Part shown: piece by piece, positions 1,155-37,064 of the stretch
How positions within the stretch are numbered: the stretch's first letter is position 1
How the letters are laid out: each line of letters opens with the position of its first letter
Origin: Actinomycetota bacterium
GTDB lineage: Bacteria; Actinomycetota; Acidimicrobiia; Acidimicrobiales; Ilumatobacteraceae
Direction of reading: 5' to 3'
DNA length: 42,320 bases
Assembly: GCA_027730505.1 (NCBI GenBank)
Contig: JAQCGT010000012.1
Coordinates: 1-42,320 of the forward strand
Translations under genes and position numbers: made by a program
The notes under the pieces: model-generated
The model's input: only the letters and a program-made list of their open reading frames with translations
What the model was told of the DNA's origin: nothing
The model's database searches: none

Positions 1155-2288
1155 ATGTTCACCACCGGTTCCAAACTCCTCCTCGGCTCCACCGTCGCTG
1201 CCCTCATCGGCACCCTGCTCTACGGGATCCTCGTCGGCGGAATCATGGGCACCGTCGGACTCGTGTCGGCCACCGCTGCGCTCGGCACCTTCGCCGCCAT
1301 CAACATCTTCACCCGTGACGCCAACGTGTCAGTCGACGACATCGATGCGTTCGCCGGCGCAGCCGCTGGCGCCGAACGCCCGGGATCGAGCATGTGGCCT
1401 CTCGCCATCGGCCTGGCCACCGCCACGATCACGCTCGGACTCGTCACCTACACGGCGATCTTCATGCTTGGCGTGATCCTGCTCATCGCCGGTACCGCCG
1501 AATGGATGCTTCAGGCGTGGGCCGAGCGAGCATCGTCGGATGCCAACCACAACCGCGAGGTGCGTGGTCGCCTCGCCTACACCGCTGAGATGCCGGCGGC
1601 GGCTGCCATCGGTCTCGGCATCGTCATCTACGCCTTCAGCCGAGTGATGCTCGGCGTGCCGAGCAAAGCCTCCACCATCGTGGCATTCTCGGTCGTGGCG
1701 GCAGTTGTGCTTGCCGTTGGAGCGTTCGTCGGCAGCAACCGTCGTATCTCCGCCCCCAAACTCACCGGCCTGTTCGCGGTCGCCGGTGTGGTGCTTGTCT
1801 CAGGCGGTGCCGTCGCCGGTCTCAACGGCGAGCGTGAGATCGAAGAACATCACACCACCGCCTACTACGCACAAGAGGGCAAGTGCGGCACGGGTGAAAT
1901 CTCGGCCGACGAGCACGCCAGCCAGACCGTTGCTGGCAAGGCGTCACAGGCAGCGACCGTGGTGCTCTCCGACAGTGGATTGACCTACACCTTCCCCGGC
2001 CTTGACCAGGTCCGTTCGGGTTCGATCCAGCTGCCCCGCTCGAGCGCCGTGAACATCCTGTTCCGCAACGAGACCAACGAACACCGTCGCCTCGTGGCCG
2101 ACATGGCACCCGAGGTCGAGGGATCACCCGCCAAGATCTGCAGTCAGTTGGTCGAAGAGGGCGGCGTACAGCTCCTCACCCTGAACTATCCCGTTCCGAG
2201 CTTCGATCCGTCGGTCGAAGCCAACGGTGGCTACGCCCTCAGCGTGCCCGGCGTCGACGGCGCCCGCCTTGAGGTCGTGGTGCCATGA
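1155..2288 (+). CDS. Multi-TM membrane protein (oxidase subunit IV-like N-terminus) with C-terminal cupredoxin-like region
   Basis: 377 aa; many TM helices then soluble C-terminus NILFRNETNEHRRLV...C; sits between oxidase subunits III and II. Confidence 0.55.
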   Translation: MFTTGSKLLLGSTVAALIGTLLYGILVGGIMGTVGLVSATAALGTFAAINIFTRDANVSVDDIDAFAGAAAGAERPGSSMWPLAIGLATATITLGLVTYTAIFMLGVILLIAGTAEWMLQAWAERASSDANHNREVRGRLAYTAEMPAAAAIGLGIVIYAFSRVMLGVPSKASTIVAFSVVAAVVLAVGAFVGSNRRISAPKLTGLFAVAGVVLVSGGAVAGLNGEREIEEHHTTAYYAQEGKCGTGEISADEHASQTVAGKASQAATVVLSDSGLTYTFPGLDQVRSGSIQLPRSSAVNILFRNETNEHRRLVADMAPEVEGSPAKICSQLVEEGGVQLLTLNYPVPSFDPSVEANGGYALSVPGVDGARLEVVVP

Positions 2289-3595
2289 GTCACTCCCACG
2301 AGGATCACGAACGCACCATGTCGACCGATGTCCGTACTACTCGTAGGCTCTCTTCCGTGCGCTCTTCACTGACCACCGCAGGGCTCGCAGTAACAGCCAT
2401 GATCGGGCTGTCTGCATGTGCGAGCAACGCCCCGCAGGACACGTGGCAGCCCGCCGGCGAGAACGCCCAGAAGATCCACGACCTGCAGTGGCCCGTGTTC
2501 ACGGTGGCCGGCATCGTCGGTGTGATCGTGCTGGTCTTCATCGGTGTCATCGTCTTCCGCTTCCGTGACAAAGGTCAAGCGATTCCCGAGCAGACACACG
2601 GCAAGGCCTGGCTCGAGTACCTCTTCATCGCCATCCCCGCCGTGATTCTCGCCGCCATCGCCATCCCGACTGTGGGCGTCGTCCTCGCTCTCGCCGAGAC
2701 CGATGACACCGAATGCATCATCAACGTCACTGGTCAACAGTGGTGGTGGGAATACGACTACGAAGTGGAGCCCGACGGCTCCATCTGCGGTTTCGCCCCG
2801 TCCGCCGGTGAGGCCAGCCCGATCATCACATCGGGCCAGGTGGTGATCCCGGCAGGCACGAACGTCCTGCTGCGAGGCACCAGCCGCGACGTGATCCACA
2901 GCTATTGGATCCCCCGTCTCAACGGTAAGCGAGACATGGTCCCAGGCCGAGTCCACTACCTGCGTCTGCAATCCGACACGCCCGGCATCTACGCCGGACA
3001 GTGCACCGAGTTCTGTGGGCTCTCCCACGCCAACATGCGCATGGAGACCGTGGTGCTCGCGCCCGCTGACTTCCAGCGATGGCTTGACAACGAACTCGAG
3101 CCCTACAAATCGCCCGCCGAAGGCACCCTCGCCAAAGAAGGCGAAGCCACCTACATCACCCAGTGCGCACGTTGCCACCAGGTGAATGGCCTCGTCGACG
3201 ACAAGGGCACCGACGACACGAGCGATGACACCGTCGTCGTGTCGTACCCCGACCAGTTCGTGTTCTCGGGCGCAGCCCCGAACCTCACCAACCTGATGGG
3301 GCGCAACACCTTCGCCGGCGCCTCATGGGATCTGCTGACACCCGAGTGTCGTGAGGACGTCTGGGAAGCGAGCCCGGAAGAGTTCGGTGAGAAGTATCTC
3401 GCCGGCGTCACCGAGGACTGCCTCAACGACATCGATCTGCGGGAATGGCTCCGCAACGCACCGGCCAAGAAGCCGATGTACGCCGACGCCGAGCTGTTGG
3501 AACCCACCGACGGCAAGACCCGCGGCATGCCCTATCTGGCCCTCTCCGAGGACCAGATCGACCAACTGATCGCCTACCTGCTCGAGCGCAAGTGA
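2285..3595 (+). CDS. ctaC: Cytochrome c oxidase subunit II with C-terminal cytochrome c domain (caa3 type)
   Basis: Lipobox LSAC; CuA motif GQCTEFCGLSHANM; heme motif CARCH; ATGA overlap with upstream gene. Confidence 0.95.
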   Translation: MSHSHEDHERTMSTDVRTTRRLSSVRSSLTTAGLAVTAMIGLSACASNAPQDTWQPAGENAQKIHDLQWPVFTVAGIVGVIVLVFIGVIVFRFRDKGQAIPEQTHGKAWLEYLFIAIPAVILAAIAIPTVGVVLALAETDDTECIINVTGQQWWWEYDYEVEPDGSICGFAPSAGEASPIITSGQVVIPAGTNVLLRGTSRDVIHSYWIPRLNGKRDMVPGRVHYLRLQSDTPGIYAGQCTEFCGLSHANMRMETVVLAPADFQRWLDNELEPYKSPAEGTLAKEGEATYITQCARCHQVNGLVDDKGTDDTSDDTVVVSYPDQFVFSGAAPNLTNLMGRNTFAGASWDLLTPECREDVWEASPEEFGEKYLAGVTEDCLNDIDLREWLRNAPAKKPMYADAELLEPTDGKTRGMPYLALSEDQIDQLIAYLLERK

Positions 3596-3602
3596 GGTTC
3601 TG

Positions 3603-5609
3603 ATGGCCATCATCGAACGCCCCTCCGACACCGTCGCCCTCGCACCATCGGGTGCGCCGGCCGTCGCCACCCCCGACACGTCGTACGGCGTGTTCCGCCG
3701 ACCGGTGCACACCACCGGGTGGAAGTCGTGGCTCTTCACGATCGACCACAAGAAGCTCGGCATCATGTACGGCGTCACCGCCATGGTGTTCTTCATCATC
3801 GGAGGCGTCGAGGCACTGCTCATCCGTCTGCAGCTCGCCGGTCCCAACGGCACCGTGCTCAACGCCGACCAGTACAACCAGATGTTCACGATGCACGCCA
3901 CCACCATGGTGTTCCTCTTCGTGATGCCGATGGCTGCTGCGTTCGCCAACTACATGGTGCCGCTGCAGATCGGTGCCCGTGACGTCGCGTTCCCACGAAT
4001 CAACGCGTTCGGATACTGGGCCTACCTGTTCGGAGGACTGCTCCTCAACTCGTCATGGTTCCTCGGCGGTGCCGCAGACGGTGGCTGGTTCATGTACGCC
4101 CCCAACTCGTCGGTCGTGTTCTCGCCGACCAACGGCGTCGACTTCTGGGGTCTCGGCCTCCAGATCACCGGAATCGCCTCGCTCACCGGTGCGATCAACC
4201 TGATCGTCACCGTCATCAACATGCGGGCACCCGGCATGAGCCTCATGAAGATGCCGATCTTCACCTGGATGGTGATGGTGGTGCAGTTCCTGCTGCTCTT
4301 CGCCATGCCGGTCATCACCGTGGCGCTGTTCATGCTCATGTTCCAGCGCTCATTCGACGCCACGTTCTTCAGCGTCGAAGCCGGTGCCGACCCGCTGCTG
4401 TGGCAGCACCTGTTCTGGATCTTCGGTCACCCCGAGGTGTACATCATCGTGTTGCCGAGCTTCGGCATCGTGTCGGAGATCCTCCCGGTGTTCTCGAAGA
4501 AGCCGCTCTTCGGATACCCGCTCGTCGTGTTCTCGGGTGCCGCCATCGGACTCGTCGGCTGGGGTGTGTGGGCCCATCACATGTTCGCCTCCGGCCTCGG
4601 ACCGATCTCGGTCGCCGTGTTCTCGGTGGCCACCATGGCGATCGCCATCCCGACCGGCGTCAAGATCGTCAACTGGACGCTCACCATGTGGGGCGGCAAG
4701 ATCGCCTTCACCGTGCCGATGCTCTACGCCGTCGGCGTGATCGTGCAGTTCACCATCGGTGGCCTCTCGGGCGTCACCCACTCGGTCGCCCCGTCGGACA
4801 CCCAGCAGACCGACACCTACTACATCGTCGCCCACTTCCACTACGTGATCTTCGGTGGAGCGGTGCTCGGACTGTTCGCCGGCCTCTACTACTGGTGGCC
4901 GAAGATGTTCGGCAAGATGCTGAATGAGCGTCTCGGTAAGTGGAACTTCTGGCTCACGATCGTCGGAATGAACTTGACGTTCGGGCCGATGCACGTCATC
5001 GGTCTTCAGGGTCAGCCCCGCCGCATGTACGTGTGGACCGAGAACCGGGCCGGTGAAGGTTTCTTCAACATCGGGTTCTGGAACCTGATGGCCACCATCG
5101 GATCGTTCGTGCTGACCCTCGGTGTGTTGGTGTTCCTCATCAACATCTACGTCTCACACCGCAAGGGAACTGAGAAGGCACCGCTCGACCCATGGGACGC
5201 TCGAAGCCTCGAGTGGATCACGGCCAACCCGCCGAAGGAACACAACTTCGACCGGCTGCCGACGGTTGGTCATCTTGATGAGTTCTTCCATCGCAAGTAC
5301 GAAGACCGCGGCGAAGGTGAACGCCACGACTACCACCAGGTGGCAACCGCCGAGGAGATCCTCGCCGCCGAGGAGGCCAGCGCCGACAAGCACATCCACC
5401 TGCCGTCGCCGTCGTACTGGCCGATCCTGCTTGCATTCAGCCTCCCGATCATGGGTTACGGCGTGATCTACAACCTGTATCTCCTCGCCGGTGGTGCCCT
5501 GTTGGCGCTGGTGTCGATGTACGGCTGGGGTATGGAGCCGCACACCGCGCCGAGCGATGACTACGACCCGCCCAAGGGCACCGAACTGGAGGTGGCCGCG
5601 CATGGCTGA
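3603..5609 (+). CDS. ctaD: Cytochrome c oxidase subunit I
   Basis: 668 aa; GHPEVYIIVLPSFG, WAHHMF, HFHYVIFGG motifs; extra C-terminal TM segments. Confidence 0.97.
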   Translation: MAIIERPSDTVALAPSGAPAVATPDTSYGVFRRPVHTTGWKSWLFTIDHKKLGIMYGVTAMVFFIIGGVEALLIRLQLAGPNGTVLNADQYNQMFTMHATTMVFLFVMPMAAAFANYMVPLQIGARDVAFPRINAFGYWAYLFGGLLLNSSWFLGGAADGGWFMYAPNSSVVFSPTNGVDFWGLGLQITGIASLTGAINLIVTVINMRAPGMSLMKMPIFTWMVMVVQFLLLFAMPVITVALFMLMFQRSFDATFFSVEAGADPLLWQHLFWIFGHPEVYIIVLPSFGIVSEILPVFSKKPLFGYPLVVFSGAAIGLVGWGVWAHHMFASGLGPISVAVFSVATMAIAIPTGVKIVNWTLTMWGGKIAFTVPMLYAVGVIVQFTIGGLSGVTHSVAPSDTQQTDTYYIVAHFHYVIFGGAVLGLFAGLYYWWPKMFGKMLNERLGKWNFWLTIVGMNLTFGPMHVIGLQGQPRRMYVWTENRAGEGFFNIGFWNLMATIGSFVLTLGVLVFLINIYVSHRKGTEKAPLDPWDARSLEWITANPPKEHNFDRLPTVGHLDEFFHRKYEDRGEGERHDYHQVATAEEILAAEEASADKHIHLPSPSYWPILLAFSLPIMGYGVIYNLYLLAGGALLALVSMYGWGMEPHTAPSDDYDPPKGTELEVAAHG

Positions 5610-6225
5610 CACCGCCGTCCATGACGACACGCACGCCGCACACGACGACCACGCCGCACATCACACCTCGACCGGCCTGTCGAACAACAAGCTGGCGATG
5701 TGGATGTTCCTCGGGTCAGAGTGCCTGCTCTTCGGCGGCCTCATCTCGACGTACATGCTCTACCGCGGTCGCCATTCGGCGAACCTCGGACCCGACCAGG
5801 TGTGGGACATCCCCTTCACGTCGGCGTCGAGCTTCGTGCTGTTGATGTCGTCACTCACCATGGTGCTTGCGGTGTCATCGGCACATCGCAAGGACGACCG
5901 CAACACCAAGGTCTGGCTCTCGGTGACAGCTCTGCTCGGCGCTCTCTTCGTGGCCGGCCAGGTGTATGAGTTCACCACGTTCTACCGAGAGGGCCTCGGC
6001 TTCACCACGAGCTTGTTCTCCTCGAGCTTCTACACCCTCACCGGTTTCCACGGTGTGCACGTGACCGTCGGCATCATCATGCTCATGTCGCTCTCCGGCA
6101 TGATCAGCCGCAACAAGGTGCCCGGCGACAAGGCTGAGACCGTCGAACTCTTCGGTCTCTACTGGCACTTCGTCGACGTGGTGTGGATCCTCATCTTCAC
6201 CCTCGTCTACCTGATCCCGGCCTGA
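5602..6225 (+). CDS. ctaE: Cytochrome c oxidase subunit III
   Basis: MADTAVHDD start at 5602 (ORF track start 5491 is upstream); GFHGVHVTVG, LYWHFVDVVWI motifs. Confidence 0.95.
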   Translation: MADTAVHDDTHAAHDDHAAHHTSTGLSNNKLAMWMFLGSECLLFGGLISTYMLYRGRHSANLGPDQVWDIPFTSASSFVLLMSSLTMVLAVSSAHRKDDRNTKVWLSVTALLGALFVAGQVYEFTTFYREGLGFTTSLFSSSFYTLTGFHGVHVTVGIIMLMSLSGMISRNKVPGDKAETVELFGLYWHFVDVVWILIFTLVYLIPA

Positions 6226-6241
6226 CCAGAATCGAGACGCC

Positions 6242-6565
6242 ATGAGCAGCGCCACCGACACCCATAGCGAACACGACACCGAATCACACGGATTGAGTGA
6301 TCTTGGTTACATCAAGATCGCGATCTTCCTCGCAGTCATCACTGCGGTGGAGGTCGTGTTCAGCTACACCCAGGAACAGCTCGGTGCTGCGTTCCTACCC
6401 GGACTGCTCATCCTCATGGGCGTCAAGTTCTTCATGGTGCTGCTCTACTTCATGCACCTGAAGTTCGACTCCAAACTGTTCAGCCTCATGTTCTACATCG
6501 GAATGGGACTGGCGGTCGGTTGTTACGCCGTGTTCCTGGCGACGATGCATTTCTTCCACTCCTGA
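6242..6565 (+). CDS. ctaF: Cytochrome c oxidase subunit IV (prokaryotic COX4 type)
   Basis: 107 aa, 3 TM; KFFMVLLYFMHLKFDSKLF motif. Confidence 0.85.
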   Translation: MSSATDTHSEHDTESHGLSDLGYIKIAIFLAVITAVEVVFSYTQEQLGAAFLPGLLILMGVKFFMVLLYFMHLKFDSKLFSLMFYIGMGLAVGCYAVFLATMHFFHS

Positions 6566-6580
6566 CCCCCGGAGGCGTCG

Positions 6581-7522
6581 ATGCCGGCGCAACTCGACAA
6601 TTTGAACCTCAACCCGTGGGCCTTCGTCCCACACCCCGAGGTGTGGCTGCTCGTCGGGTTCCTCACGGCTGCGTACGTGTACATGGTGCGGGTCATCGGG
6701 CCGAAAGCCGTCGGCCCCGGTGTCGAGGTCATTTCCCGCCGTAACCGCAACTCGTTCATCGCTGCCATGGTGATCCTGTGGATCGCAAGCGACTGGCCGG
6801 TGCACGACATCAGCGAGGACTACCTCTACTCGGTGCACATGGTGCAGCACATGGCACTGGCCTTCTGGGTGCCGCCGCTCGCCCTCATGGCCACCCCAGA
6901 GTGGCTCATGCGTACCCTCATCGGTTCGGGACGGATCTACAAGGCGTTGCGGTGGCTCACCCTGCCCGTCGTTGCGGCGCTGCTTTACAACGGTGGCACC
7001 ATGCTCACCCACCTGCCGTCGCTGGTGAACGCGTCCGTCGGCGACGGCTACTGGAACGGCGCACTGCACTACGGCCTTCATGTGATCGTGGTGACGGCGT
7101 CATTGCTGATGTGGATGCCGGTCGTCGGTCCGATCCCCGAGTTCCGCCTCGGACTCATCGGCAAGATGATCTACCTGTTCGCGCAATCGATCGTGCCGAC
7201 GATCCCTGCGGCGTTCCTCACCTTCGCCGACTCGGCCGTGTACTCGGCGTACGAACGTCCGGTGCGACTCTGGGGCATGTCGCTCGTCGACGACCAACAG
7301 CTCGCCGGCGCCATCATGAAACTGATGGGCGGCATGTTCTTGTGGGCACTCGTGATCTACTACTTCATGCAGTACGCGAAGCAGTTCCGTCACAGCCACG
7401 ACTACCGACGCGGCAACCGACCACACGACAGCGAGATGGTGGGAACCGATGACTCGCCGCTCACCACGGCCGACGTCGAAGCCGCATTTGCCCGCAGTAC
7501 CCCGGTCCGCGAAGAGCGCTGA
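6581..7522 (+). CDS. ctaG: Cytochrome c oxidase assembly factor CtaG-like membrane protein
   Basis: 313 aa multi-TM; SVHMVQHMALAFWVPPLALMATP motif; GGAGG upstream; position after ctaF. Confidence 0.85.
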   Translation: MPAQLDNLNLNPWAFVPHPEVWLLVGFLTAAYVYMVRVIGPKAVGPGVEVISRRNRNSFIAAMVILWIASDWPVHDISEDYLYSVHMVQHMALAFWVPPLALMATPEWLMRTLIGSGRIYKALRWLTLPVVAALLYNGGTMLTHLPSLVNASVGDGYWNGALHYGLHVIVVTASLLMWMPVVGPIPEFRLGLIGKMIYLFAQSIVPTIPAAFLTFADSAVYSAYERPVRLWGMSLVDDQQLAGAIMKLMGGMFLWALVIYYFMQYAKQFRHSHDYRRGNRPHDSEMVGTDDSPLTTADVEAAFARSTPVREER

Positions 7523-9554: not shown

Positions 9555-9582
9555 GTACAGAATGACAACAAACATTCTGTAC
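9555..9582. promoter_or_regulatory. Perfect 10-bp inverted repeat (GTACAGAATG-N8-CATTCTGTAC), candidate toxin-antitoxin operator
   Basis: Arms 9555-9564 and 9573-9582 are exact reverse complements; lie just upstream of the vapB-like ATG (9592). Confidence 0.8.
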
Positions 9583-9591
9583 ACTTTGGAG

Positions 9592-9873
9592 ATGGACATC
9601 GGCATCACCGAACTCCGGGCCAACCTCGCACACTGGATCGCCCGAGCAGCGTCGGGTGACGATGTTGTGATTACCGACCACGGACGTCCCGTTGCGCGTC
9701 TGGTGCCCACCGAACCCGTTGACCGGTGGTCGGAACTCATCGAATCAGGACTCGTGCTGCGACCAGACGAGGTGACTCGGAGTCACCGAACGGACGACTT
9801 CCCGATTGCGCACGAGCCGACCGGGGTGTCGCTCGCCGATGAACTCGAGGCGATGCGAGACGAAGACCGTTGA
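9592..9873 (+). CDS. vapB: Type II antitoxin, Phd/YefM/VapB family
   Basis: MDIGITELRANLAHWIARAASGDDVVITDHGRPVARLVP; start 9592 preferred over 9562, which would place the palindrome inside the CDS. Confidence 0.88.
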   Translation: MDIGITELRANLAHWIARAASGDDVVITDHGRPVARLVPTEPVDRWSELIESGLVLRPDEVTRSHRTDDFPIAHEPTGVSLADELEAMRDEDR

Positions 9874-10295
9874 TCGTCTATCTCGACACGAGTGCGGTCA
9901 TCAAGCTCATCCACATCGAGACCGGCACCGATACGGCACAGCGGCTCTGGCGATCAGCATCGACTCTGTGTGCGAGTTCGATCGTGGTGCCAGAGGTGGC
10001 CTCGGTGATCCGCCGCGTGTCGGGGCCAAGCGGACCGGGCCAGCTCCAGCAGGCGTGGATGTCTCGTCGACGCTACGTCTCAATGATCTCGGTCGATCCT
10101 TCGGTCATCGCTCTCGCCGAAGACCTCGCCGGACGCCACCCACTCTCGGGCGCCGATGCGCTCCATCTCGCCTCGGCACTCACGACCAACTTCGGCAACC
10201 TCATCTTCCTCACCTGGGATCGACGGTTGCATCAGGCGGCGCACGTTGAGGGGCTCACCGTCGCTCCCCGAGACCCGAACGCAGGCGAGCCGTAG
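9870..10295 (+). CDS. vapC: PIN-domain toxin, VapC family
   Basis: MIVYLDTSAVIKL, conserved E, DALHLASA, LTWDRRL; TTG start overlapping the vapB stop. Confidence 0.9.
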   Translation: MIVYLDTSAVIKLIHIETGTDTAQRLWRSASTLCASSIVVPEVASVIRRVSGPSGPGQLQQAWMSRRRYVSMISVDPSVIALAEDLAGRHPLSGADALHLASALTTNFGNLIFLTWDRRLHQAAHVEGLTVAPRDPNAGEP

Positions 10296-11289: not shown

Positions 11290-11336
11290 CGAGTCAACCC
11301 CTCACGTCGGGAACCGCAACGGCGCTCCGAGCGACC

Positions 11337-11855
11337 ATGACAGTCGTGAAGACACGACTCCTGCTCCCCGCTCTCGCTGTGATCACCCTCGGTGCTGTTG
11401 CCTGTGGCGGTGACGACGAGAGCATCACCATCACCGACCCGTGGGCCCGAACCAGCCCCGCCATGGTCACGATGGGCGCCGCCTACATGCAGATCGCCGC
11501 ATCGGCAGGCGACACCCTCATCGGCGTCAGCGTGCCCTCATCGATCGCCGAACGTGCCGAGATCCACGAGATGGCCCCTGTCGCCGCAACAGACGACTCG
11601 ATGGAAATGAGCTCGGACGATTCAATGGACATGGACTCCATGGATATGGAGTCGATGGACGAGGTCATGGTCATGCAACAGATCATGAGCCTCGAGCTCC
11701 CGGCCGGTGAGACCGTTGAACTGAAGCCCGGCGGCTACCACGTCATGCTCATCGGACTCGCTGCCCCGCTCGAGATCGGTGAAACCTTCGACCTCACCCT
11801 CGACTTCGAAAACGCCGAGGATCAGGTTGTGACCGTGGAGGTCCGCGAAGGCTGA
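11337..11855 (+). CDS. PCu(A)C-type periplasmic copper chaperone lipoprotein with Met/Asp-rich insertion
   Basis: Lipobox AVAC; DPWARTSPAMVTMGAAYMQI; EIHEM...; GGYHVMLIGL; repeat DDSMEMSSDDSMDMDSMDMESMD. Confidence 0.9.
   Translation: MTVVKTRLLLPALAVITLGAVACGGDDESITITDPWARTSPAMVTMGAAYMQIAASAGDTLIGVSVPSSIAERAEIHEMAPVAATDDSMEMSSDDSMDMDSMDMESMDEVMVMQQIMSLELPAGETVELKPGGYHVMLIGLAAPLEIGETFDLTLDFENAEDQVVTVEVREG
11592..11660 (+). repeat. In-frame degenerate repeat coding (D/E)SM(D/E)M units
   Basis: gacgactcgatggaaatgagc...gacatggactccatggatatggagtcgatggac. Confidence 0.75.
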
Positions 11856-12334
11856 TGCTGCGCCGGATTGGATTCGCCGCACTGCTCGTCATCGTCACCG
11901 CATGCGGCGGGTCCGACCCATCGGCGACCCTGCCCGACATCACCCTCGAACGAGTCGACGGTGATGCCGCAGTCGATCTCGGTGATCTCGACGGCCCTGC
12001 CGTCATCAATCTGTGGGCGACCTGGTGTGCCCCATGTCGGCGAGAGATCCCCGATCTTGAGACGTTTCATCGAGACCTCGGCGACGCCGTCGACGTGATC
12101 GGCATCAACATCGGCGACGAGCCGGACCAGATCACCAACTTCCTCAACGACCTCGACGAACCCGCCGTCACCTACACCCAACTCGTCGACCCACTCGCCG
12201 ACGTCGCCGATCACCTCGGATCGAGCACACTGCCCGTCACCGTGGTTGTGGCCAACGGCCAGATCGTGGAACGACACGATGGCCCGATCACCGCCGACGA
12301 ACTCAACGATCTGATCGCACCACACCTGGGCTGA
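11855..12334 (+). CDS. TlpA/ResA-like thiol-disulfide oxidoreductase lipoprotein
   Basis: Lipobox TACG; NLWATWCAPCRREIPDLE; cis-Pro region STLPVTVVV. Confidence 0.92.
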   Translation: MLRRIGFAALLVIVTACGGSDPSATLPDITLERVDGDAAVDLGDLDGPAVINLWATWCAPCRREIPDLETFHRDLGDAVDVIGINIGDEPDQITNFLNDLDEPAVTYTQLVDPLADVADHLGSSTLPVTVVVANGQIVERHDGPITADELNDLIAPHLG

Positions 12335-13319
12335 TGAGCACAGCGAGTGCGCCGGCGATCGCCGCCACCGCCACCACCGCCGCACCGGCCGTGACCACAC
12401 GATCGACGGCGCCGGGCCACGGACTCGGAATCAACGCCCGCCACAATCCGGTACGGCGATCCCACACCCACACGCTGAGCACCACACCCGATACGAGCAA
12501 CGCACCGTTCGCCCAGAACCAGCGGCCCGACCGCTCGAACGCCACACCAGCCGCGCCGCCGATCAGTGCGCCGAGCGGCAACACCCACCAGCGCGGGTTA
12601 GGGCCGGTATCAGCCGGCGTTGTCGCGTAGGTAACGACTCCGACGATCAGTGCCACCAGCGACACAGCGCCGAGCCACATCGACGCAGCAGCCAGTCGAC
12701 GTCCACCGAAGACCAGTACCGCTGCCACCGCAGCCATACCGAGAATCAGACCGGCGATCGATGGTCGTGCCGACGGGGCTGGCAACAACGTGCTCTCCAC
12801 CCGCACCGCCACGTCGACATCGTCAACCGTGAACGGCACCAGCGACGAGATGACGACATCCCCGGGCTCGGCCCCAATCGGCGGGGACGACTCCATCCAA
12901 TGGATCCGGTGATCGTGCCATGCCACCGAACAGTCATCGTCGATCTGCTCCCACTCGGGGGTGGCGTCCGGATCGACGAAGTCCGGTCTCACGACATCGC
13001 CATAGCGATCCTCGTTGTACCAGGCGGACCAACTCAGGCGGTTCTGCCACACCGAGCAATCGGCATCGATCCGCAGATAGGGCTCGGCGTCGTAGCCCGG
13101 GATCGTGGCGGTCGACCCAGGATCGACGTTCAGCCACAAGAACGAATCGACCCCTTCGACCTTGATCGAGAATGTGTCGGGCACACCGTCAGCACCGTCA
13201 GCGGTGACATCGACAACCACCGACTCGAAATCTGTCGGGCCGGGCGCATCGGCCGAGACCACCCTGGCAGGAATGATCACGAAGGCACACGCGAGCAGCG
13301 ATCCCCGCAGCCACCTCAT
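12303..13319 (-). CDS. Secreted/membrane protein of unknown function (signal peptide, extracytoplasmic domain, C-terminal TM helices)
   Basis: Start MRWLRG at 13319 gives ATGA overlap with upstream gene; EPYLRIDADCSVW...YNEDRYGD...AWHDHRIHWM; several C-terminal TM segments. Confidence 0.7.
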   Translation of the reverse strand: MRWLRGSLLACAFVIIPARVVSADAPGPTDFESVVVDVTADGADGVPDTFSIKVEGVDSFLWLNVDPGSTATIPGYDAEPYLRIDADCSVWQNRLSWSAWYNEDRYGDVVRPDFVDPDATPEWEQIDDDCSVAWHDHRIHWMESSPPIGAEPGDVVISSLVPFTVDDVDVAVRVESTLLPAPSARPSIAGLILGMAAVAAVLVFGGRRLAAASMWLGAVSLVALIVGVVTYATTPADTGPNPRWWVLPLGALIGGAAGVAFERSGRWFWANGALLVSGVVLSVWVWDRRTGLWRALIPSPWPGAVDRVVTAGAAVVAVAAIAGALAVLISPGVVRSDR

Positions 13320-13705
13320 GCGGGAAGAACCTTGAGGGTGAACCGCCCGCTCGGATGCACCGAACAATCCCCGCTCAACTCACCAGCCGAGGTGAACGAC
13401 TGCACCATCGTCTCACCCGCACCCACATAGAAGATGCCGACCACATGGCCACGGTCGTCCTCGTTCACGATGCGGATCGACTCCCCGACACGCACCACGA
13501 GTTCGGCTGGCACGATGTCGAGTTGCTCCCCGGCATCGATACGGGCGCCGGCACCTGCCGGAATCGTGTAGTCGTACTCGGCGACCGCCGACATATCACC
13601 GGCTGTCGTTCCGGGAGCGGAGTCACCGGACGTCACCCAGACACCGGCAACAACACCGACCAGCCCGAGCGCCGCCACCACCGCAAGCAGCCGCAGTCGG
13701 TTCAC
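13316..13705 (-). CDS. Cupredoxin-like secreted protein
   Basis: N-terminal TM/signal; LVVRVGESIRIVNEDDRGHVVG...FTSAGELSGDCSVHPSGRFTLKV (His...Cys..His arrangement). Confidence 0.75.
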   Translation of the reverse strand: MNRLRLLAVVAALGLVGVVAGVWVTSGDSAPGTTAGDMSAVAEYDYTIPAGAGARIDAGEQLDIVPAELVVRVGESIRIVNEDDRGHVVGIFYVGAGETMVQSFTSAGELSGDCSVHPSGRFTLKVLPA

Positions 13706-14310
13706 GCCCGTCGACCCGCCAGGAGATCCTCGATGTCGGCCCGCAACGCCGCCCGTTCGAGACCGAACGGCCAGGTGATGAGCAACCCACCGGTGTCATC
13801 GACGGCGTACAGCGATCCCGAGTGCGCCACCTCGATCGTTCCGTCATCGGCTTCGGTGACCGAATAGCTCGCGCCGAAGGCCTCAGCCGCAGTCAGCAGT
13901 TGCACAGCATCCTCGGTACCGAGAGCGATGCCATCGGGGAAGAAACTCGTCACGTAGTCAGGCAGGATCGGAATGTCGCGATCGGGATCAACCGTCACCA
14001 TCGCCACGTCGACCCGATCACGATCGGCGTCATCGATCTCGCGCAGTGCAATTCGAAGATCCTGCATTGTCGTTGGACACACATCTGGGCAATTCGTGTA
14101 GCCGAAATAGACGATCAACAGTCCGTCATCGTCAGCGACGAGCTCCCGCTCACCGCCAGCGTCGCCGAGAATCGGCAGCACGACTCCGGCCAGACTCGGA
14201 TTCGGAGTGCGCACGTAGCCAGCGAGCTCACGCTGACCTCCGCACGCAACCGCGAGGAACGCCAGCACCACAGCAATGACCGCTCGGGGCATCAGCGCAG
14301 CCCGCCTCAT
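13702..14310 (-). CDS. SCO1/SenC family copper metallochaperone lipoprotein
   Basis: Lipobox AVAC; VYFGYTNCPDVCPTTMQDL; VTVDPDRD. Confidence 0.93.
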   Translation of the reverse strand: MRRAALMPRAVIAVVLAFLAVACGGQRELAGYVRTPNPSLAGVVLPILGDAGGERELVADDDGLLIVYFGYTNCPDVCPTTMQDLRIALREIDDADRDRVDVAMVTVDPDRDIPILPDYVTSFFPDGIALGTEDAVQLLTAAEAFGASYSVTEADDGTIEVAHSGSLYAVDDTGGLLITWPFGLERAALRADIEDLLAGRRA

Positions 14311-14690
14311 GGCAACTCCAACTCAGCGATGAAGTCAGTGATCGACTCGACATCGCTCAACGAGAGATTGTTCATCGGCATCGGAATCGAATAGCCGGCA
14401 ACTTTTCGAGCTGCCGGATCCATGATCGACTCGACGACATAGGCACGGTCGGCAACGAGGGATGTGCCGTCGGCGAACTCCGAGGTCGATCCGATCAAGC
14501 CCACCAACGACGGGCCGACACCGCCTCCGCCATCTGATCCATGACACGCAGCACAACCGTTCGAGATGTAGATCGACCGGCCCGCGGCCGCAGCCTCGGA
14601 CAATGCTGGCCCGGAATCATCAGCACCACACGCTGCGAGTAGAGCGACACCGACGGCAACGCCGAGCACCGACCGTACCGACGACGTCAC
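14307..14690 (-). CDS. Small c-type cytochrome lipoprotein
   Basis: Lipobox LAAC; NGCAACHGSDGGGGVGPSL; distal Met candidates in IPMPMNNLS. Confidence 0.9.
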   Translation of the reverse strand: MTSSVRSVLGVAVGVALLAACGADDSGPALSEAAAAGRSIYISNGCAACHGSDGGGGVGPSLVGLIGSTSEFADGTSLVADRAYVVESIMDPAARKVAGYSIPMPMNNLSLSDVESITDFIAELELP

Positions 14691-15241
14691 GCGGAACGCT
14701 CCACAACGCCAAATCCCGAACCCTGAAGATGCTCGATCAGATCCATTCGTGCACGAGCGACGCGCGACCGGACTGTGCCGATGGGACAGTCGATCACATC
14801 AGCTGCCTCGGCGTAGGACAAGCCGAGGACCTGAGTCAGCACAAACGCATCACGGCGATCCGGATCAAGCCGATCGAACACATCGTCGAGTTCGGTGGTG
14901 CCCAGGTCGTGATGCACATCAGCGACGACACCACCTTCGAGTCGGCCGTTGCGGCGACGCGTGCGCTCCCGACGCCGGACTGAGTCGGCGCAGACCCGTC
15001 GGGTGATCTGGCGAACCCAGTGCACGGCCGGCCCATCACCGCGGAATCGGTGCATCGAGGCGACGATTCGTTCATTCGTCTCCTGGATCAGGTCGTCGAT
15101 CGAGTCCGGGTCTCCGAGAAGTCGGCACAACGGCTCGATCTCTGTGCGAGCCCACACGAAGAATTGCCGAGACGCCTCGGCGTCGCCCGCGGCCGCGGCG
15201 AGCAGGAGCTCGGACCAACGGGCATCGGCGTCGGCGACCAT
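14687..15241 (-). CDS. ECF-type RNA polymerase sigma factor
   Basis: Region 2 DDLIQETNERIVASMHRF; region 4 LGLSYAEAADVIDCPIGTVRSRVARAR; start at 15241 (GGGGGA upstream) or 15271. Confidence 0.9.
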   Translation of the reverse strand: MVADADARWSELLLAAAAGDAEASRQFFVWARTEIEPLCRLLGDPDSIDDLIQETNERIVASMHRFRGDGPAVHWVRQITRRVCADSVRRRERTRRRNGRLEGGVVADVHHDLGTTELDDVFDRLDPDRRDAFVLTQVLGLSYAEAADVIDCPIGTVRSRVARARMDLIEHLQGSGFGVVERSA

Positions 15242-15287
15242 TCCCCCAGTCAACCAGGTCTTCCGCCACATCTCCCAGGGTCCTCGG

Positions 15288-16631
15288 TCACACCAGACGA
15301 CCGGTGCGAGCCCACCACTCGATCAGCCGAGATCGCGCCTGGGTGTCGAACGAGAACGCCGACAACACCGCCTCCCCACAGGCGACCAGATCACCGGCGG
15401 TGAGGGCCTCGACGGCCACATCGAGCGACACCCTCGGCCATGGCACCGACATGATCACCGATGGCGATAAACGCACGCTCGTCGGTGCCAGGCCCGAACC
15501 GGCCATCGTCTGCCAGGCGTGCAACGTCGCCACCGGCGACGTCAGCAATGCAGCGATCGCGTCGACGTCACCCGGATCGTGGGGCACCACCGAGACCACG
15601 GGCACGCCCGGCAACCACGAACCGTCCCGATCAGCGACCGCCTCCACCACACGAGTCTGAGCCGCAACGAGCACCTTGGGAACCAACAGGGCCTCAGCCC
15701 ATGGTCGGAACCGACCCTCGAGCTGATCGAGATCAACTCTCGGATGATCAAGGCGCTGCTTCGCGAACCGCACCGGACGCTCACCCCACCGACACCGACC
15801 GGGATCGATCAACCCCGACGTCACCAGCGGCGGACCGACAGCACCGTCGGACACGGCGGGAACAAGTGCGTAGTACTCGTCGCGGAAATTCGCAGTGGCC
15901 CTCGCTCGATCACCGATGGTCGTACCGGTGTCGGGAAGGGCCAACCGAGGAACGTCGAGCACCTCGGTCACCACCGACGACCACGGCGCAGGATCACCGG
16001 GAATGTCCACATCACGGCGCTCGAAGACCAGCATGCACACGTTCACCTCGGCGTCGAATGGACGCTCGGGCGACCACCACGACCCGACGATGTGCGCCGC
16101 GCCCGTCACCGCAGAGCGCAACGCGGCGGCATCACGGGCCGTCAACACCGACTGGGGGAGCAGGATCACCATCCGGCCACCCGGCCGTAGCGACAACACA
16201 CCAGCGAGACAGAACTCCATCGCGGCGTTCGCGTACGGGCCACCGCCGAAACGACTCGCACCACGACGAGACGTCGCCGTTGCCATCTGGGACAGGAACG
16301 GTGGGTTTGCGATCACGAGATCAAACGGTCCGCGTTCACGACTCCAATCCACCGACAACCCGTCAACGCAGCGCACGTCGAGACGCCCGTCGTCTATGGC
16401 AGCCACGGTCTCCGCATCGACATCAGCACCGACGGCGATCACACCGTCGCCGAGTCGATCACAGATAGCTGAGAGCAGCCGACCATCGCCACACGCCGGA
16501 TCGAGCACCCTCATCGCACCAGACGTCGGCGTCACATCGTCAAGCAACGCGTCGGCCATCCGGGCGATGAGTGACGCCGGTGTGTACCAAGCGCCGAGGC
16601 GTCGGCGCTGCGCCGGTTGCCGATCCGCCAT
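15288..16631 (-). CDS. N6-adenine-specific DNA methyltransferase-like protein
   Basis: WYTPASLIARMADALL; VLDPACGDGRLL; FDLVIANPPFLSQ; start MADRQP at 16631 (ORF extends to 16787). Confidence 0.85.
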   Translation of the reverse strand: MADRQPAQRRRLGAWYTPASLIARMADALLDDVTPTSGAMRVLDPACGDGRLLSAICDRLGDGVIAVGADVDAETVAAIDDGRLDVRCVDGLSVDWSRERGPFDLVIANPPFLSQMATATSRRGASRFGGGPYANAAMEFCLAGVLSLRPGGRMVILLPQSVLTARDAAALRSAVTGAAHIVGSWWSPERPFDAEVNVCMLVFERRDVDIPGDPAPWSSVVTEVLDVPRLALPDTGTTIGDRARATANFRDEYYALVPAVSDGAVGPPLVTSGLIDPGRCRWGERPVRFAKQRLDHPRVDLDQLEGRFRPWAEALLVPKVLVAAQTRVVEAVADRDGSWLPGVPVVSVVPHDPGDVDAIAALLTSPVATLHAWQTMAGSGLAPTSVRLSPSVIMSVPWPRVSLDVAVEALTAGDLVACGEAVLSAFSFDTQARSRLIEWWARTGRLV

Positions 16632-34463: not shown

Positions 34464-37064
34464 TCAGCGAGGGCGCATCGGCAACCTATGTCGGTGCTCG
34501 CCGTCGAAGGCGTGGAGCGCTGCGGCCACCGCTGGCGCCGTGGGCACCAGGCCGATCTCACCGACACCTTTGATGCCGAAGGGCGACCGAGGTTGTGGCA
34601 CTTCGACGAGGCGAACCTCGACAGCAGGCATGTCTTTAGCGCGCAGGATGCCCAACTGTCGCAAGGTGGTCGCAGTCGGCATTGCCGACTCATCGGCGGG
34701 GAAGTCCTCGGTGAGGGCGTAACCGAGACCCATGTGCACTGAACCCTCGACCTGACCTTCGACGAGTAAGGGGTTCACCGCACGGCCGACGTCGTGAACG
34801 GCGACGACACGATCGACCGAACCACCCTCATCGAGCACGACCATCTGCGCCGCATATGAGAAACACGAATGGATCGTCGGGTTCTGCACCGTCGGGTCGC
34901 CGAGCTTCTGCGTCCAATCGATCACGTACTCACCGTGATGATCGACGTCAGGTGTGCATCCAGCCTCGAGCGCGGCCGCACACGCAGCGCGCACCGAGCC
35001 GGCGGTCATCAACGTGCCTCGGCTTCCCGTGGTTTGACCGAAACCGAGTTCACGCGTCGTGTCGACGATCACGTCGATACGACTGGGATCGACACCGAGT
35101 TCACCAGCAGCCACCTGTAGGGCGACCGTGTGCACACCTTGACCCATTTCGGTCCATCCATGACGCACCTCGATGCGGCCGTCGGTTCGGAACCGCACCA
35201 CCGCACCGCACACCTCTCGGAAGCCGTTGCCGAGTCCTGAGTTCTTCATGCCGATGGCGAGACCCACGGCCCGCCCCTCGGCACGCGCTGCCTCCCAGTC
35301 GGGCCGGATCGCATCGAGACAGGCGAGTGCCCCACCGGCACCGTCGTCCATCACCTGACCAGGACCCCAGATGTCGCCCGAGGCGATCACGTTGCGCCGA
35401 CGCATCTCCCATGGATCGATCCCTGCGACCTCGGCGAGACGATCGATCATGCCCTCGGTTGCGAACTGCGCCTGATTAGCGCCGAAGCCTCGGAATGCTC
35501 CGCACACCGGGTTGTTCGTGCGAACCGCGATCGCCTCAACGTCGAGCGCCTGCCAGCGGTATGGACCTGCAGCGTGGCCGGCGGCCCGTTCGAGCACTTT
35601 CATGCCGACACTCGCATAGGCGCCGGAGTCGCCGATGGCACGAACCGAGAGACCGGTGAGTGTGCCCTCGGCATCGCATCCCGCACGCATGACCAACTGG
35701 ATCGGATGACGCTTGGCGTGCATGCGGAAGCTTTCCGGTCGGCTGAGCGTGCACTTGACCGGGCGGTCGAGAATCCAGGCAGCGAGTGCTGCATGCCCCT
35801 GGTTGGACATGTCCTCCTTGCCGCCGAAAGCACCGCCGTTAGACACGAGCTCGACCGTGACCCGGTCGCGTTCAACGCCGAGCACGGCAGCGATGTCGTT
35901 ACGGTCGTCCCACACACCCTGACCACCCGAGTACACGTGCAGTCGGCGATCATCGCCACTGCCCGAAGGGACCGCCACCGTCGACTCCGGCTCCAAGAAG
36001 GCGTGCTCGATGCGCTGCGTGGTGAATGTTTCGCTGACGACATGGGCGCTCGCATCGATCACGGCATCGACATCTTTTGACACACCGTCAGCGCTGCGTC
36101 GGTACGCGCTCGTCGACAGCACGTTCGAGTCGGTTCCCCAGACGGCGATCGGAGCGCCCTCAGCCAACGCTGCCACGGGGTCGACGACCGGCGGAAGTAC
36201 GTCGTAATCGATCGCCACCAGTTCAGCTGCTGCCCGTGCCCGCTCCCGTGTGTCGGCCACGACGACAGCGAGCACATCGCCGCCATAGGAGGTGACACCG
36301 TCGACGGGAATCATCAACGGCCAGTCCTTGTGGATGAGTCCGGTGCGCAACTCGCCGGGGATGTCCTGGGCGGTGAGAACCGACACCACTCCGGGTGCCG
36401 CACGCGCGTCGGCGATGTCGATGCGTCGCACCCTGGCTCGGGCGTGGTCGGTGAGCCGAAGCGCTGCGTGCAGCATCCCCGGCACTCGAATGTCGTCGAC
36501 ATAGTCACGATGGCCGAGGGTCAACTCAGCTGCCTCGTACTTGGCGCCCCGGCCACCGACACCGTCGGCAAGGCGCGGCGGGTCAACGGCACGTCCCTGT
36601 GCGACGGTCTCGATGGCGTCGAGGATCTTCACGTATCCAGTGCAGCGGCACAGATGGGCGCCGAGATGCGGGGCCATCGCCTCCCGGGTGAGCGCCGCCC
36701 CCTTCTTCGCGATCTGATGATGGGCCCGCATGACGATGCCCGGAATACAGAATCCGCATTGGAGGCCACCGCAGGCTGCGAAGGCCTCGGCGAATCTCGT
36801 GCGTTCATCCTCGGGCAGCCCTTCGAGGGTCACCACCTGCTTGCCCGCCACCGAGTCGACTGATTGCTGGCAGGCCACCACGGCCCGCCCGTCGATGAGC
36901 ACCGTGCAGCAGCCGCACTGACCGGATGGGGAACATCCGTCCTTCGGCGAGGTGATGTCGAGCTCTTCGCGAAGAGCCGACAGCAGGTGCGGGTGCTCGA
37001 CCCCGACGCTCACGTCATGGCCGTTCACGCTGAACTGGACACGCCCCTGCTCGATCACCGACAC
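34464..37064 (-). CDS. Xanthine dehydrogenase-family molybdenum hydroxylase, fused [2Fe-2S] and Mo-cofactor domains
   Basis: CSPSGQCGCCTVLIDGRAVVAC; LQCGFCIPGIVM...HLCRCTGY; GGAFGGKEDMS; GAFRGFGANQAQFATE; GKG.GEIGLVP-like C-terminus. Confidence 0.92.
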   Translation of the reverse strand: MSVIEQGRVQFSVNGHDVSVGVEHPHLLSALREELDITSPKDGCSPSGQCGCCTVLIDGRAVVACQQSVDSVAGKQVVTLEGLPEDERTRFAEAFAACGGLQCGFCIPGIVMRAHHQIAKKGAALTREAMAPHLGAHLCRCTGYVKILDAIETVAQGRAVDPPRLADGVGGRGAKYEAAELTLGHRDYVDDIRVPGMLHAALRLTDHARARVRRIDIADARAAPGVVSVLTAQDIPGELRTGLIHKDWPLMIPVDGVTSYGGDVLAVVVADTRERARAAAELVAIDYDVLPPVVDPVAALAEGAPIAVWGTDSNVLSTSAYRRSADGVSKDVDAVIDASAHVVSETFTTQRIEHAFLEPESTVAVPSGSGDDRRLHVYSGGQGVWDDRNDIAAVLGVERDRVTVELVSNGGAFGGKEDMSNQGHAALAAWILDRPVKCTLSRPESFRMHAKRHPIQLVMRAGCDAEGTLTGLSVRAIGDSGAYASVGMKVLERAAGHAAGPYRWQALDVEAIAVRTNNPVCGAFRGFGANQAQFATEGMIDRLAEVAGIDPWEMRRRNVIASGDIWGPGQVMDDGAGGALACLDAIRPDWEAARAEGRAVGLAIGMKNSGLGNGFREVCGAVVRFRTDGRIEVRHGWTEMGQGVHTVALQVAAGELGVDPSRIDVIVDTTRELGFGQTTGSRGTLMTAGSVRAACAAALEAGCTPDVDHHGEYVIDWTQKLGDPTVQNPTIHSCFSYAAQMVVLDEGGSVDRVVAVHDVGRAVNPLLVEGQVEGSVHMGLGYALTEDFPADESAMPTATTLRQLGILRAKDMPAVEVRLVEVPQPRSPFGIKGVGEIGLVPTAPAVAAALHAFDGEHRHRLPMRPR

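What the first reader, a model, noticed from the sequence alone, without database searches (positions are those of the whole stretch)
12303..15271. Five-gene coupled operon: ECF sigma, cytochrome c lipoprotein, SCO lipoprotein, cupredoxin-like protein, membrane protein
Seen: all four junctions are 4-nt NTGA overlaps (14687-14690, 14307-14310, 13702-13705, 13316-13319), implying tight translational coupling. The sigma gene is followed by a lipoprotein cytochrome c rather than a recognisable anti-sigma gene. Established: SCO and cupredoxin proteins handle copper; CuA assembly of heme-copper oxidases uses SCO. Inference: an extracytoplasmic copper/redox-responsive regulon in which a c-type cytochrome or the terminal membrane protein gates the sigma factor. 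It faces PCu(A)C-tlpA and lies about 5 kb from a caa3 oxidase locus. Best candidate in the window for an undescribed system.
Basis: partly seen in the sequence, partly recalled or inferred. Interest (0 to 1): 0.7.

Follow-up and report, generated by a model that had tools for sequence, protein, structure and literature searches.

The report
Copper-linked sigma factor with distant anti-sigma
A bacterial gene switch (an ECF sigma factor) sits in one operon with helpers that put copper into respiratory enzymes, and its most likely 'off' protein, a membrane anti-sigma factor normally encoded beside it in relatives, is found elsewhere in this genome while still carrying the same promoter signature.

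Summary
In detail: five minus-strand genes (sigma, cytochrome c, SCO, cupredoxin-like, membrane protein) overlap by GTGA/ATGA at all four stated places, and the order is conserved in Ilumatobacteraceae. An N6-methylase gene ends 16 nt upstream of the sigma.

In 43 of 51 sigma-bearing relatives' loci a zf-HC2 anti-sigma gene (cytoplasmic zinc domain plus four membrane helices) lies at the locus, usually divergent from the sigma. In the window's genus it is missing there but retained elsewhere (here contig C1:48046-48738). Within the genus it occurs in the same four genomes as the sigma, plus one 72%-complete genome.

Relatives' anti-sigma promoters share GGGAAC-N17-CGAC. The motif also sits directly before the distant anti-sigma gene and before PCuAC-TlpA facing the operon (window 11307-11339), and is absent from PCuAC in nine of nine sigma-lacking congeners assessed.

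Best reading: a SigC-like copper/CuA-assembly regulon held off by an unlinked membrane anti-sigma, resembling mycobacterial SigC and its putative anti-sigma RscA. The cue (probably copper shortage or faulty oxidase assembly) is inferred. The terminal membrane protein (WHDHRxHWM motif, 374 genome loci) is an uncharacterised, probably copper-handling family. New variant of a known kind.

The parts
14687..15271 (-). ECF sigma factor (SigC-like; an in-frame ATG start near 15238 is also possible)
   Evidence: Pfam Sigma70_r2 42.6 bits, r4_2 54.2 bits; best NCBIfam matches PRK12535 and SigC PRK09649, both below equivalog cut-offs
14307..14690 (-). lipoprotein c-type cytochrome
   Evidence: Pfam Cytochrom_C 37.5 bits; CxxCH, a Met and lipobox Cys conserved 21/21
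13702..14310 (-). SCO1/SenC lipoprotein
   Evidence: Pfam SCO1-SenC 78.4 bits; CPDVCP cysteines and His conserved 30/30
13316..13705 (-). cupredoxin-like protein
   Evidence: sub-threshold Copper-bind; His 30/31, Cys 31/31, His 28/31 conserved
12303..13319 (-). uncharacterised membrane protein, WHDHRxHWM family: extracytoplasmic beta domain plus five predicted membrane helices
   Evidence: no Pfam/NCBIfam/PDB sequence match; 374 confirmed genome loci for the motif; AF2 model pLDDT 91.7; no significant fold match
15288..16622 (-). N6-methylase-like gene ending 16 nt upstream of the sigma; divergent from coaA
   Evidence: Pfam N6_Mtase 48.1 bits; coaA-methylase next to the sigma locus conserved in the family; start codon approximate
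11307..11339 (+). predicted ECF promoter GGGAACC-N16-CGAC (GGAAC-N17-CGAC), immediately upstream of PCuAC
   Evidence: best matrix hit in the window, 26.7 bits, next best 11.8; exact pattern hit
11346..11855 (+). PCu(A)C copper chaperone (GTG 11346 preferred over ATG 11337 because of the promoter)
   Evidence: Pfam PCuAC 106.2 bits; promoter position; start choice is inference
11855..12334 (+). TlpA-like thioredoxin lipoprotein, overlapping PCuAC by 1 nt
   Evidence: Pfam AhpC-TSA and Redoxin about 60 bits

Best explanation
The operon encodes a SigC-like ECF sigma factor together with an extracytoplasmic copper-handling/CuA-assembly set (cytochrome c, SCO, cupredoxin-like protein, uncharacterised membrane protein). 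The sigma is held inactive at the membrane by a zf-HC2, four-helix anti-sigma factor that in this genus is encoded at an unlinked site (contig C1:48046-48738). When the anti-sigma detects its cue outside the membrane, most likely low available copper or a faulty copper site in the caa3 oxidase, the sigma is released and transcribes from GGGAAC-type promoters (GGAAC-N17-CGAC). In this genome those lie before PCuAC-TlpA (supplying SCO and CuA) and before the anti-sigma gene itself (negative feedback). Shown by sequence: gene order, the anti-sigma family and its retention in the genus, the motif and its tracking with the sigma. Inferred: physical pairing, direct recognition of the motif by this sigma, copper as cue, direction of response, and sensing by the conserved H/H/D/E/H residues predicted on the outer face of the anti-sigma.
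For: A zf-HC2 anti-sigma is at the locus in 43 of 51 sigma-bearing loci, usually divergent; zf-HC2 above cut-off in three relatives; fold matches RsiW (prob 0.99) and RslA (0.92) on the cytoplasmic domain. The window genome has one strong family member, C1, E 7.5e-26; in the genus it is present in G000, G270, G008, G259 (and G288, 72% complete), and the sigma ortholog in exactly G000, G270, G008, G259. H, H, D, E, H conserved 75-80 of 80 and kept in the distal copy. 68 of 74 divergent anti-sigma/sigma intergenic regions carry the motif, 65 with spacing 17. Motif enriched upstream of genes not used for training: PCuAC 31/53, cytochrome c 38/61, SCO 14/76, against methylase 0/29, metAP 0/31, coaA 0/29; background 1.2% (some loci are duplicates of one genome). 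In this genome the motif sits directly upstream of the distal anti-sigma and of PCuAC. In the genus the PCuAC motif is present in G000, G270, G008 and absent in nine of nine assessable sigma-lacking genomes. Relatives put the same anti-sigma beside CopC-CopD, YcnI-like and SCO genes. M. tuberculosis SigC supports copper acquisition (PMC7924339) and C. glutamicum SigC responds to aa3 defects and copper deprivation (PMC7337898).
Against: No expression or binding data. The distal anti-sigma belongs to a different anti-sigma sublineage from the one beside operon-type sigmas (99.7 support; grouping with the operon type rejected, p 4e-5), so it is not simply the moved original; it may be a partner swap or may belong to another, lost sigma. 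The sigma tree alone does not exclude the other sublineage (83 support, p 0.14). No motif lies before the methylase, sigma or cytochrome c in the window, so the five-gene operon itself is not a predicted target here, although cytochrome c or SCO is in relatives. GGAAC-type -35 elements are shared by many ECF sigmas (general knowledge). G302 (58% complete) has the PCuAC motif without a detected sigma, and G288 (72%) the anti-sigma without a detected sigma; both could be assembly gaps.
Confidence: 0.68

Rival explanations
1. The terminal membrane protein (WHDHRxHWM family) is itself the sigma's membrane regulator, perhaps like multi-helix anti-sigmas without a zinc domain.
For: In several class members the sigma is followed directly by this protein (L060-L062, L066, L070, L077); it has an extracytoplasmic domain with a conserved His/Met motif that could sense copper.
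Against: Where sigma and membrane protein are adjacent a zf-HC2 anti-sigma is usually present too (L060, L062, L070, L077). The protein occurs in many loci without any sigma. Its model has no cytoplasmic domain, only short loops. The sigma is often found without it nearby (L140-L146, L149).
Confidence: 0.1
2. The sigma is not held by any anti-sigma in this genus: it is controlled by its own conformation or abundance, and the C1 zf-HC2 protein is a leftover that serves another sigma.
For: The C1 protein descends from another anti-sigma sublineage; self-occlusion has been proposed for M. tuberculosis SigC (PMC8999054); M. [quoted passage not shown]
Against: No sigma gene lies beside the C1 gene, and the other ECF-type locus examined (C12) has its own small zinc-finger protein. 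The C1 gene and the sigma are kept or absent together within the genus, G288 aside, and its promoter carries the presumed motif.
Confidence: 0.15
3. The overlaps only reflect compact gene packing: the sigma regulates an unrelated stress and travels with constitutively expressed CuA-assembly genes.
For: No expression data; no motif in front of the window's own cytochrome c or SCO genes.
Against: The motif is enriched before cytochrome c, SCO and PCuAC genes of relatives but not before neighbouring housekeeping genes, and tracks with the sigma at PCuAC within the genus.
Confidence: 0.07

Closest known systems
Mycobacterial SigC (ECF36) and its putative anti-sigma RscA
   Same: Related ECF sigma (second-best NCBIfam match); copper-linked (PMC7924339); putative anti-sigma RscA unlinked in M. 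tuberculosis but near sigC in other mycobacteria (PMC6917791). A member of the same zf-HC2 four-helix family lies near a SigC-type sigma, in the same orientation, in 29 of the 30 best loci of a Mycobacterium-like genus.
   Different: The window sigma is below the SigC equivalog cut-off (101 vs 219 bits), is not beside cobK, and is in an operon with SCO/cytochrome c rather than monocistronic; predicted targets are CuA-assembly chaperones, not the nrp operon and ctpB. Whether RscA of M. tuberculosis belongs to this family was not tested.
Corynebacterium glutamicum SigC
   Same: ECF sigma linked to aa3 oxidase function and copper deprivation (PMC7337898).
   Different: C. glutamicum SigC drives cydABCD; no such target was found here, and no sequence comparison with it was run.
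TlpA-ScoI-PcuC copper delivery of Bradyrhizobium
   Same: Same kinds of parts: PCuAC, SCO and a TlpA-like reductant for CuA assembly (PMC6696091).
   Different: No ECF sigma is described for that pathway there; here the set adds a cytochrome c, a cupredoxin-like protein and the WHDHR membrane protein.
CorE (Myxococcus xanthus)
   Same: Copper-related ECF sigma.
   Different: CorE senses copper through a Cys-rich C-terminal extension (PMC8999054); the window sigma has no such extension.

Membership tests
ECF sigma factor | sigma-70 regions 2 and 4 present | tested here: met
   Pfam Sigma70_r2 and Sigma70_r4_2 above cut-off
SigC equivalog (PRK09649) | score above the curated cut-off of 219 bits | tested here: not met
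   101.4 bits
SigC equivalog (PRK09649) | chromosomal position beside cobK | tested here: not met
   neighbours are an N6-methylase and cytochrome c; cobK is beside SigC in L326
SigC-type copper regulator | copper-dependent regulon | tested here: inconclusive
   motif before PCuAC here and before cytochrome c/SCO/PCuAC in relatives; no expression data
Zinc-binding anti-sigma factor (zf-HC2) | HxxxCxxC zinc motif and anti-sigma-domain fold | tested here: met
   zf-HC2 38-40 bits in three relatives; motif 80/80 including the window genome's copy; RsiW/RslA fold match for a relative
Zinc-binding anti-sigma factor (zf-HC2) | binds and inhibits the cognate sigma | not testable with these tools
   needs an interaction or transcription assay
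SCO1/SenC | CxxxC plus distal His copper ligands | tested here: met
   conserved 30/30 and present in the window protein
Cupredoxin (plastocyanin/azurin, PF00127) | score above the Pfam cut-off | tested here: not met
   14.1 vs 21.2 bits; H/C/H ligand-like positions are conserved
PCu(A)C chaperone | PF04314 domain above cut-off | tested here: met
   106.2 bits

The most novel reading that the evidence does not exclude
In this genus the original anti-sigma beside the sigma was lost and replaced by an unlinked anti-sigma of a sister sublineage that recognises the same sigma and uses the same promoter motif: a natural partner swap within one family of copper-linked, four-helix membrane anti-sigmas whose outer-face H/H/D/E/H site is the sensor. 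This family would include the anti-sigma of mycobacterial SigC, and the WHDHRxHWM protein would be a new extracytoplasmic copper-handling factor for CuA assembly.
Probability: 0.3. Interest if true: 0.7.

Novelty: new variant of a known kind. Interest (0 to 1): 0.5.

Why it matters
How actinobacterial SigC-type sigmas sense copper status is open; the 2021 M. tuberculosis study states that no anti-SigC factor had been identified (PMC7924339), although a putative unlinked RscA is mentioned elsewhere (PMC6917791). This work gives a defined anti-sigma family with conserved candidate metal ligands, a promoter motif and a predicted regulon, testable in cultured Ilumatobacter. It also indicates that sigma and anti-sigma genes can become unlinked while both are kept, so 'no adjacent anti-sigma' should not be read as 'no anti-sigma'. 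It flags an unnamed, widespread membrane protein family (374 genome loci) tied to copper genes.

Tried and rejected
Gating by the cytochrome c or the terminal membrane protein: rejected as the main model once the anti-sigma was found. Autoregulation of the sigma operon: no motif before methylase, sigma or cytochrome c in the window. Other members of the regulon in this genome: 20 sites of the looser pattern against 15 for the reversed control, and none of the extra sites examined lay clearly at a promoter. Simple relocation of the operon's own anti-sigma: rejected by the tree. A known fold for the membrane protein: no significant PDB match (best E 3.8e-3 with TM-score about 0.2, pentameric receptors, not meaningful). 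'Loss' of the membrane protein in G008 and G259: not claimed, because in G008 the contig ends right after the cupredoxin gene and G259 may likewise have a gap. The Morosov 2018 copper-deprivation paper is not held.
Full report
WHAT IS THERE. Family searches support an ECF sigma, a c-type cytochrome lipoprotein, an SCO1/SenC lipoprotein, a cupredoxin-like protein (below the Pfam cut-off, but with conserved His/Cys/His positions) and a membrane protein that matches no Pfam, NCBIfam or PDB sequence. An N6-methylase-like gene ends 16 nt upstream of the sigma start and is divergent from coaA. On the opposite strand lie a methionine aminopeptidase gene, PCuAC and a TlpA-like gene; a coxB-coxA-coxC-ctaG cluster lies at 2285-7522 (read by eye).

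CONSERVATION. The membrane protein was found in 48 of 148 genomes of the class and, by its WHDHRxH[WA]M motif, at 374 confirmed loci in a collection of one genome per species. In the window's family, Ilumatobacteraceae judging by the named relatives (Ilumatobacter, Desertimonas), the layout coaA / methylase / sigma-cytc-sco-cup-memb / tlpA-pcuac / metAP recurs. Elsewhere in Acidimicrobiia the cytc-sco-cup-memb cassette is kept but rearranged, often facing sigma-PCuAC; other loci join the membrane protein to CopC-CopD and YcnI-like genes without a sigma.

THE ANTI-SIGMA. Most relatives carry, next to the sigma and usually divergent from it, a gene of about 200-230 codons with an N-terminal zf-HC2 domain and four predicted membrane helices. 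Of 51 sigma-bearing loci, 43 have it at the locus; the eight without include all four of the window's genus. The modelled cytoplasmic domain of a relative matches the anti-sigmas RsiW and RslA. Beyond the zinc motif, two His at the start of helix 2, an Asp at the end of helix 3, and Glu and His at the start of helix 4 are conserved in 75-80 of 80 sequences. If the N-terminus is cytoplasmic, all five face outwards: a plausible extracytoplasmic metal site (inference).

IN THIS GENUS. Nothing lies between methylase and sigma, but the genome holds one strong family member at C1:48046-48738, divergent from a thioredoxin-like lipoprotein gene and beside an aldo-keto reductase gene; the same neighbours recur in the congeners that have it. 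Of 16 genomes of the genus, G000, G270, G259 and G008 have the sigma; the same four, plus the 72%-complete G288, have the unlinked anti-sigma; eleven have neither. Phylogeny places the unlinked protein in a sister sublineage of the operon-type anti-sigmas (99.7 support; grouping with the operon type rejected, p 4e-5). Synteny, and more weakly the sigma tree (83 support, alternative not rejected, p 0.14), place the sigma with the operon type. A partner swap is therefore possible but not proven. Unlinked pairs also occur in other genera (for example G152, G177, G157), where the anti-sigma can sit behind CopCD genes.

PROMOTER AND REGULON. Sixty-eight of 74 intergenic regions between divergent anti-sigma and sigma genes contain GGAAC-N15 to 18-CGAC pointing at the anti-sigma gene, 65 with exactly 17. 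A matrix built from 55 distinct sites was tested upstream of genes not used for training: PCuAC 31/53, cytochrome c 38/61 and SCO 14/76 reached 12 bits, against 0/29 methylase, 0/31 metAP, 0/29 coaA, 1/101 sigma, 1/77 cupredoxin-like and 2/142 membrane protein; random regions 1.2% (some loci were fetched twice by different routes and many are related, so counts are not independent). In the window the best hit by far is 11307-11339, directly before PCuAC (26.7 bits; next 11.8). The unlinked anti-sigma genes of all five congeners also carry it. Within the genus the PCuAC motif is present in G000, G270 and G008, which have the sigma, and in G302 (58% complete, sigma not found); it is absent in nine of nine assessable genomes lacking the sigma. 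The looser pattern is not enriched genome-wide (20 hits against 15 for the reversed control), so the predicted regulon here is small: the anti-sigma and PCuAC-TlpA. The window's own cytochrome c to membrane-protein genes have no such promoter and are presumably co-transcribed with the sigma.

MECHANISM. From the roles of SCO, PCuAC and TlpA in CuA assembly (PMC6696091), the set most likely supplies copper to the caa3 oxidase encoded nearby. The anti-sigma would hold the sigma until extracytoplasmic copper, or a correctly built oxidase, is lacking; the sigma then raises PCuAC-TlpA and its own inhibitor. The direction (shortage rather than excess) is inferred from the target genes and from SigC precedents in M. 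tuberculosis (PMC7924339) and C. glutamicum (PMC7337898).

COMPARISON. The window sigma resembles SigC but fails the SigC equivalog cut-off and lacks the cobK neighbour. The same anti-sigma family is present in 162 of 249 genomes of a genus recognised here as Mycobacterium-like from a SigC equivalog, CobK and a PPE-like protein. In 29 of the 30 best-scoring loci a SigC-type sigma lies in the same orientation in the locus fetched. Where the anti-sigma was mapped at its full length the sigma starts about 230 nt after it; in about a dozen of the 30 the script recorded a minor second alignment instead, so the spacing, and the promoter upstream, were not measured there. These 30 are biased towards that arrangement because one query row came from it. 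In the loci inspected singly a motif of 22-25 bits lies upstream of the anti-sigma, but the automatic scan within 200 nt of the domain start in the 30 loci found it in only one, so the promoter is not established for that genus. The literature names a putative anti-SigC, RscA, unlinked in M. tuberculosis and near sigC in other species (PMC6917791), while the copper study states none had been identified (PMC7924339). The arrangement found here fits that picture; identity of RscA with this family was not tested.

VERDICT. A real, conserved copper-linked sigma system. It is best described as a new variant of the SigC-type sigma/anti-sigma kind, with an unlinked, possibly swapped anti-sigma and an uncharacterised membrane protein family.

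Noticed in passing
loci L324-L326, L329-L358 (Mycobacterium-like genus): A zf-HC2 four-helix anti-sigma gene lies upstream of a SigC-type sigma (SigC equivalog next to cobK in L326) in most of the best-scoring loci, and 162 of 249 genomes of that genus carry the family; a candidate anti-SigC.
   Followed up: partly
window 12303-13319; loci L180-L259: The WHDHRxHWM membrane protein family (374 confirmed genome loci) has no Pfam or NCBIfam model and travels with CopC-CopD, YcnI-like, SCO and PCuAC genes; some genomes (G106) have two copies.
   Followed up: partly
window 11540-11640: The PCuAC protein contains a Met/Asp/Ser-rich insertion (DDSMEMSSDDSMDMDSMDMESMDEVM) that could be an extra copper-binding stretch.
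   Followed up: no
window 9562-10295: Two small overlapping genes that look like a Phd-type antitoxin and a PIN-domain (VapC-like) toxin, judged by eye from the translations.
   Followed up: no
window 36108-36140 (-): Second-best match to the sigma promoter matrix (11.8 bits); its gene context was not examined.
   Followed up: no
loci L251, L252: Contigs labelled Bifidobacterium breve MAG encode a protein of this mostly Acidimicrobiia family, possibly mislabelled or mixed bins.
   Followed up: no
loci L046, L047, L049: PCuAC-SCO-CopC/CopD-like-cupredoxin-membrane protein operons without sigma or anti-sigma nearby, suggesting that the copper cassette also exists under other control.
   Followed up: no
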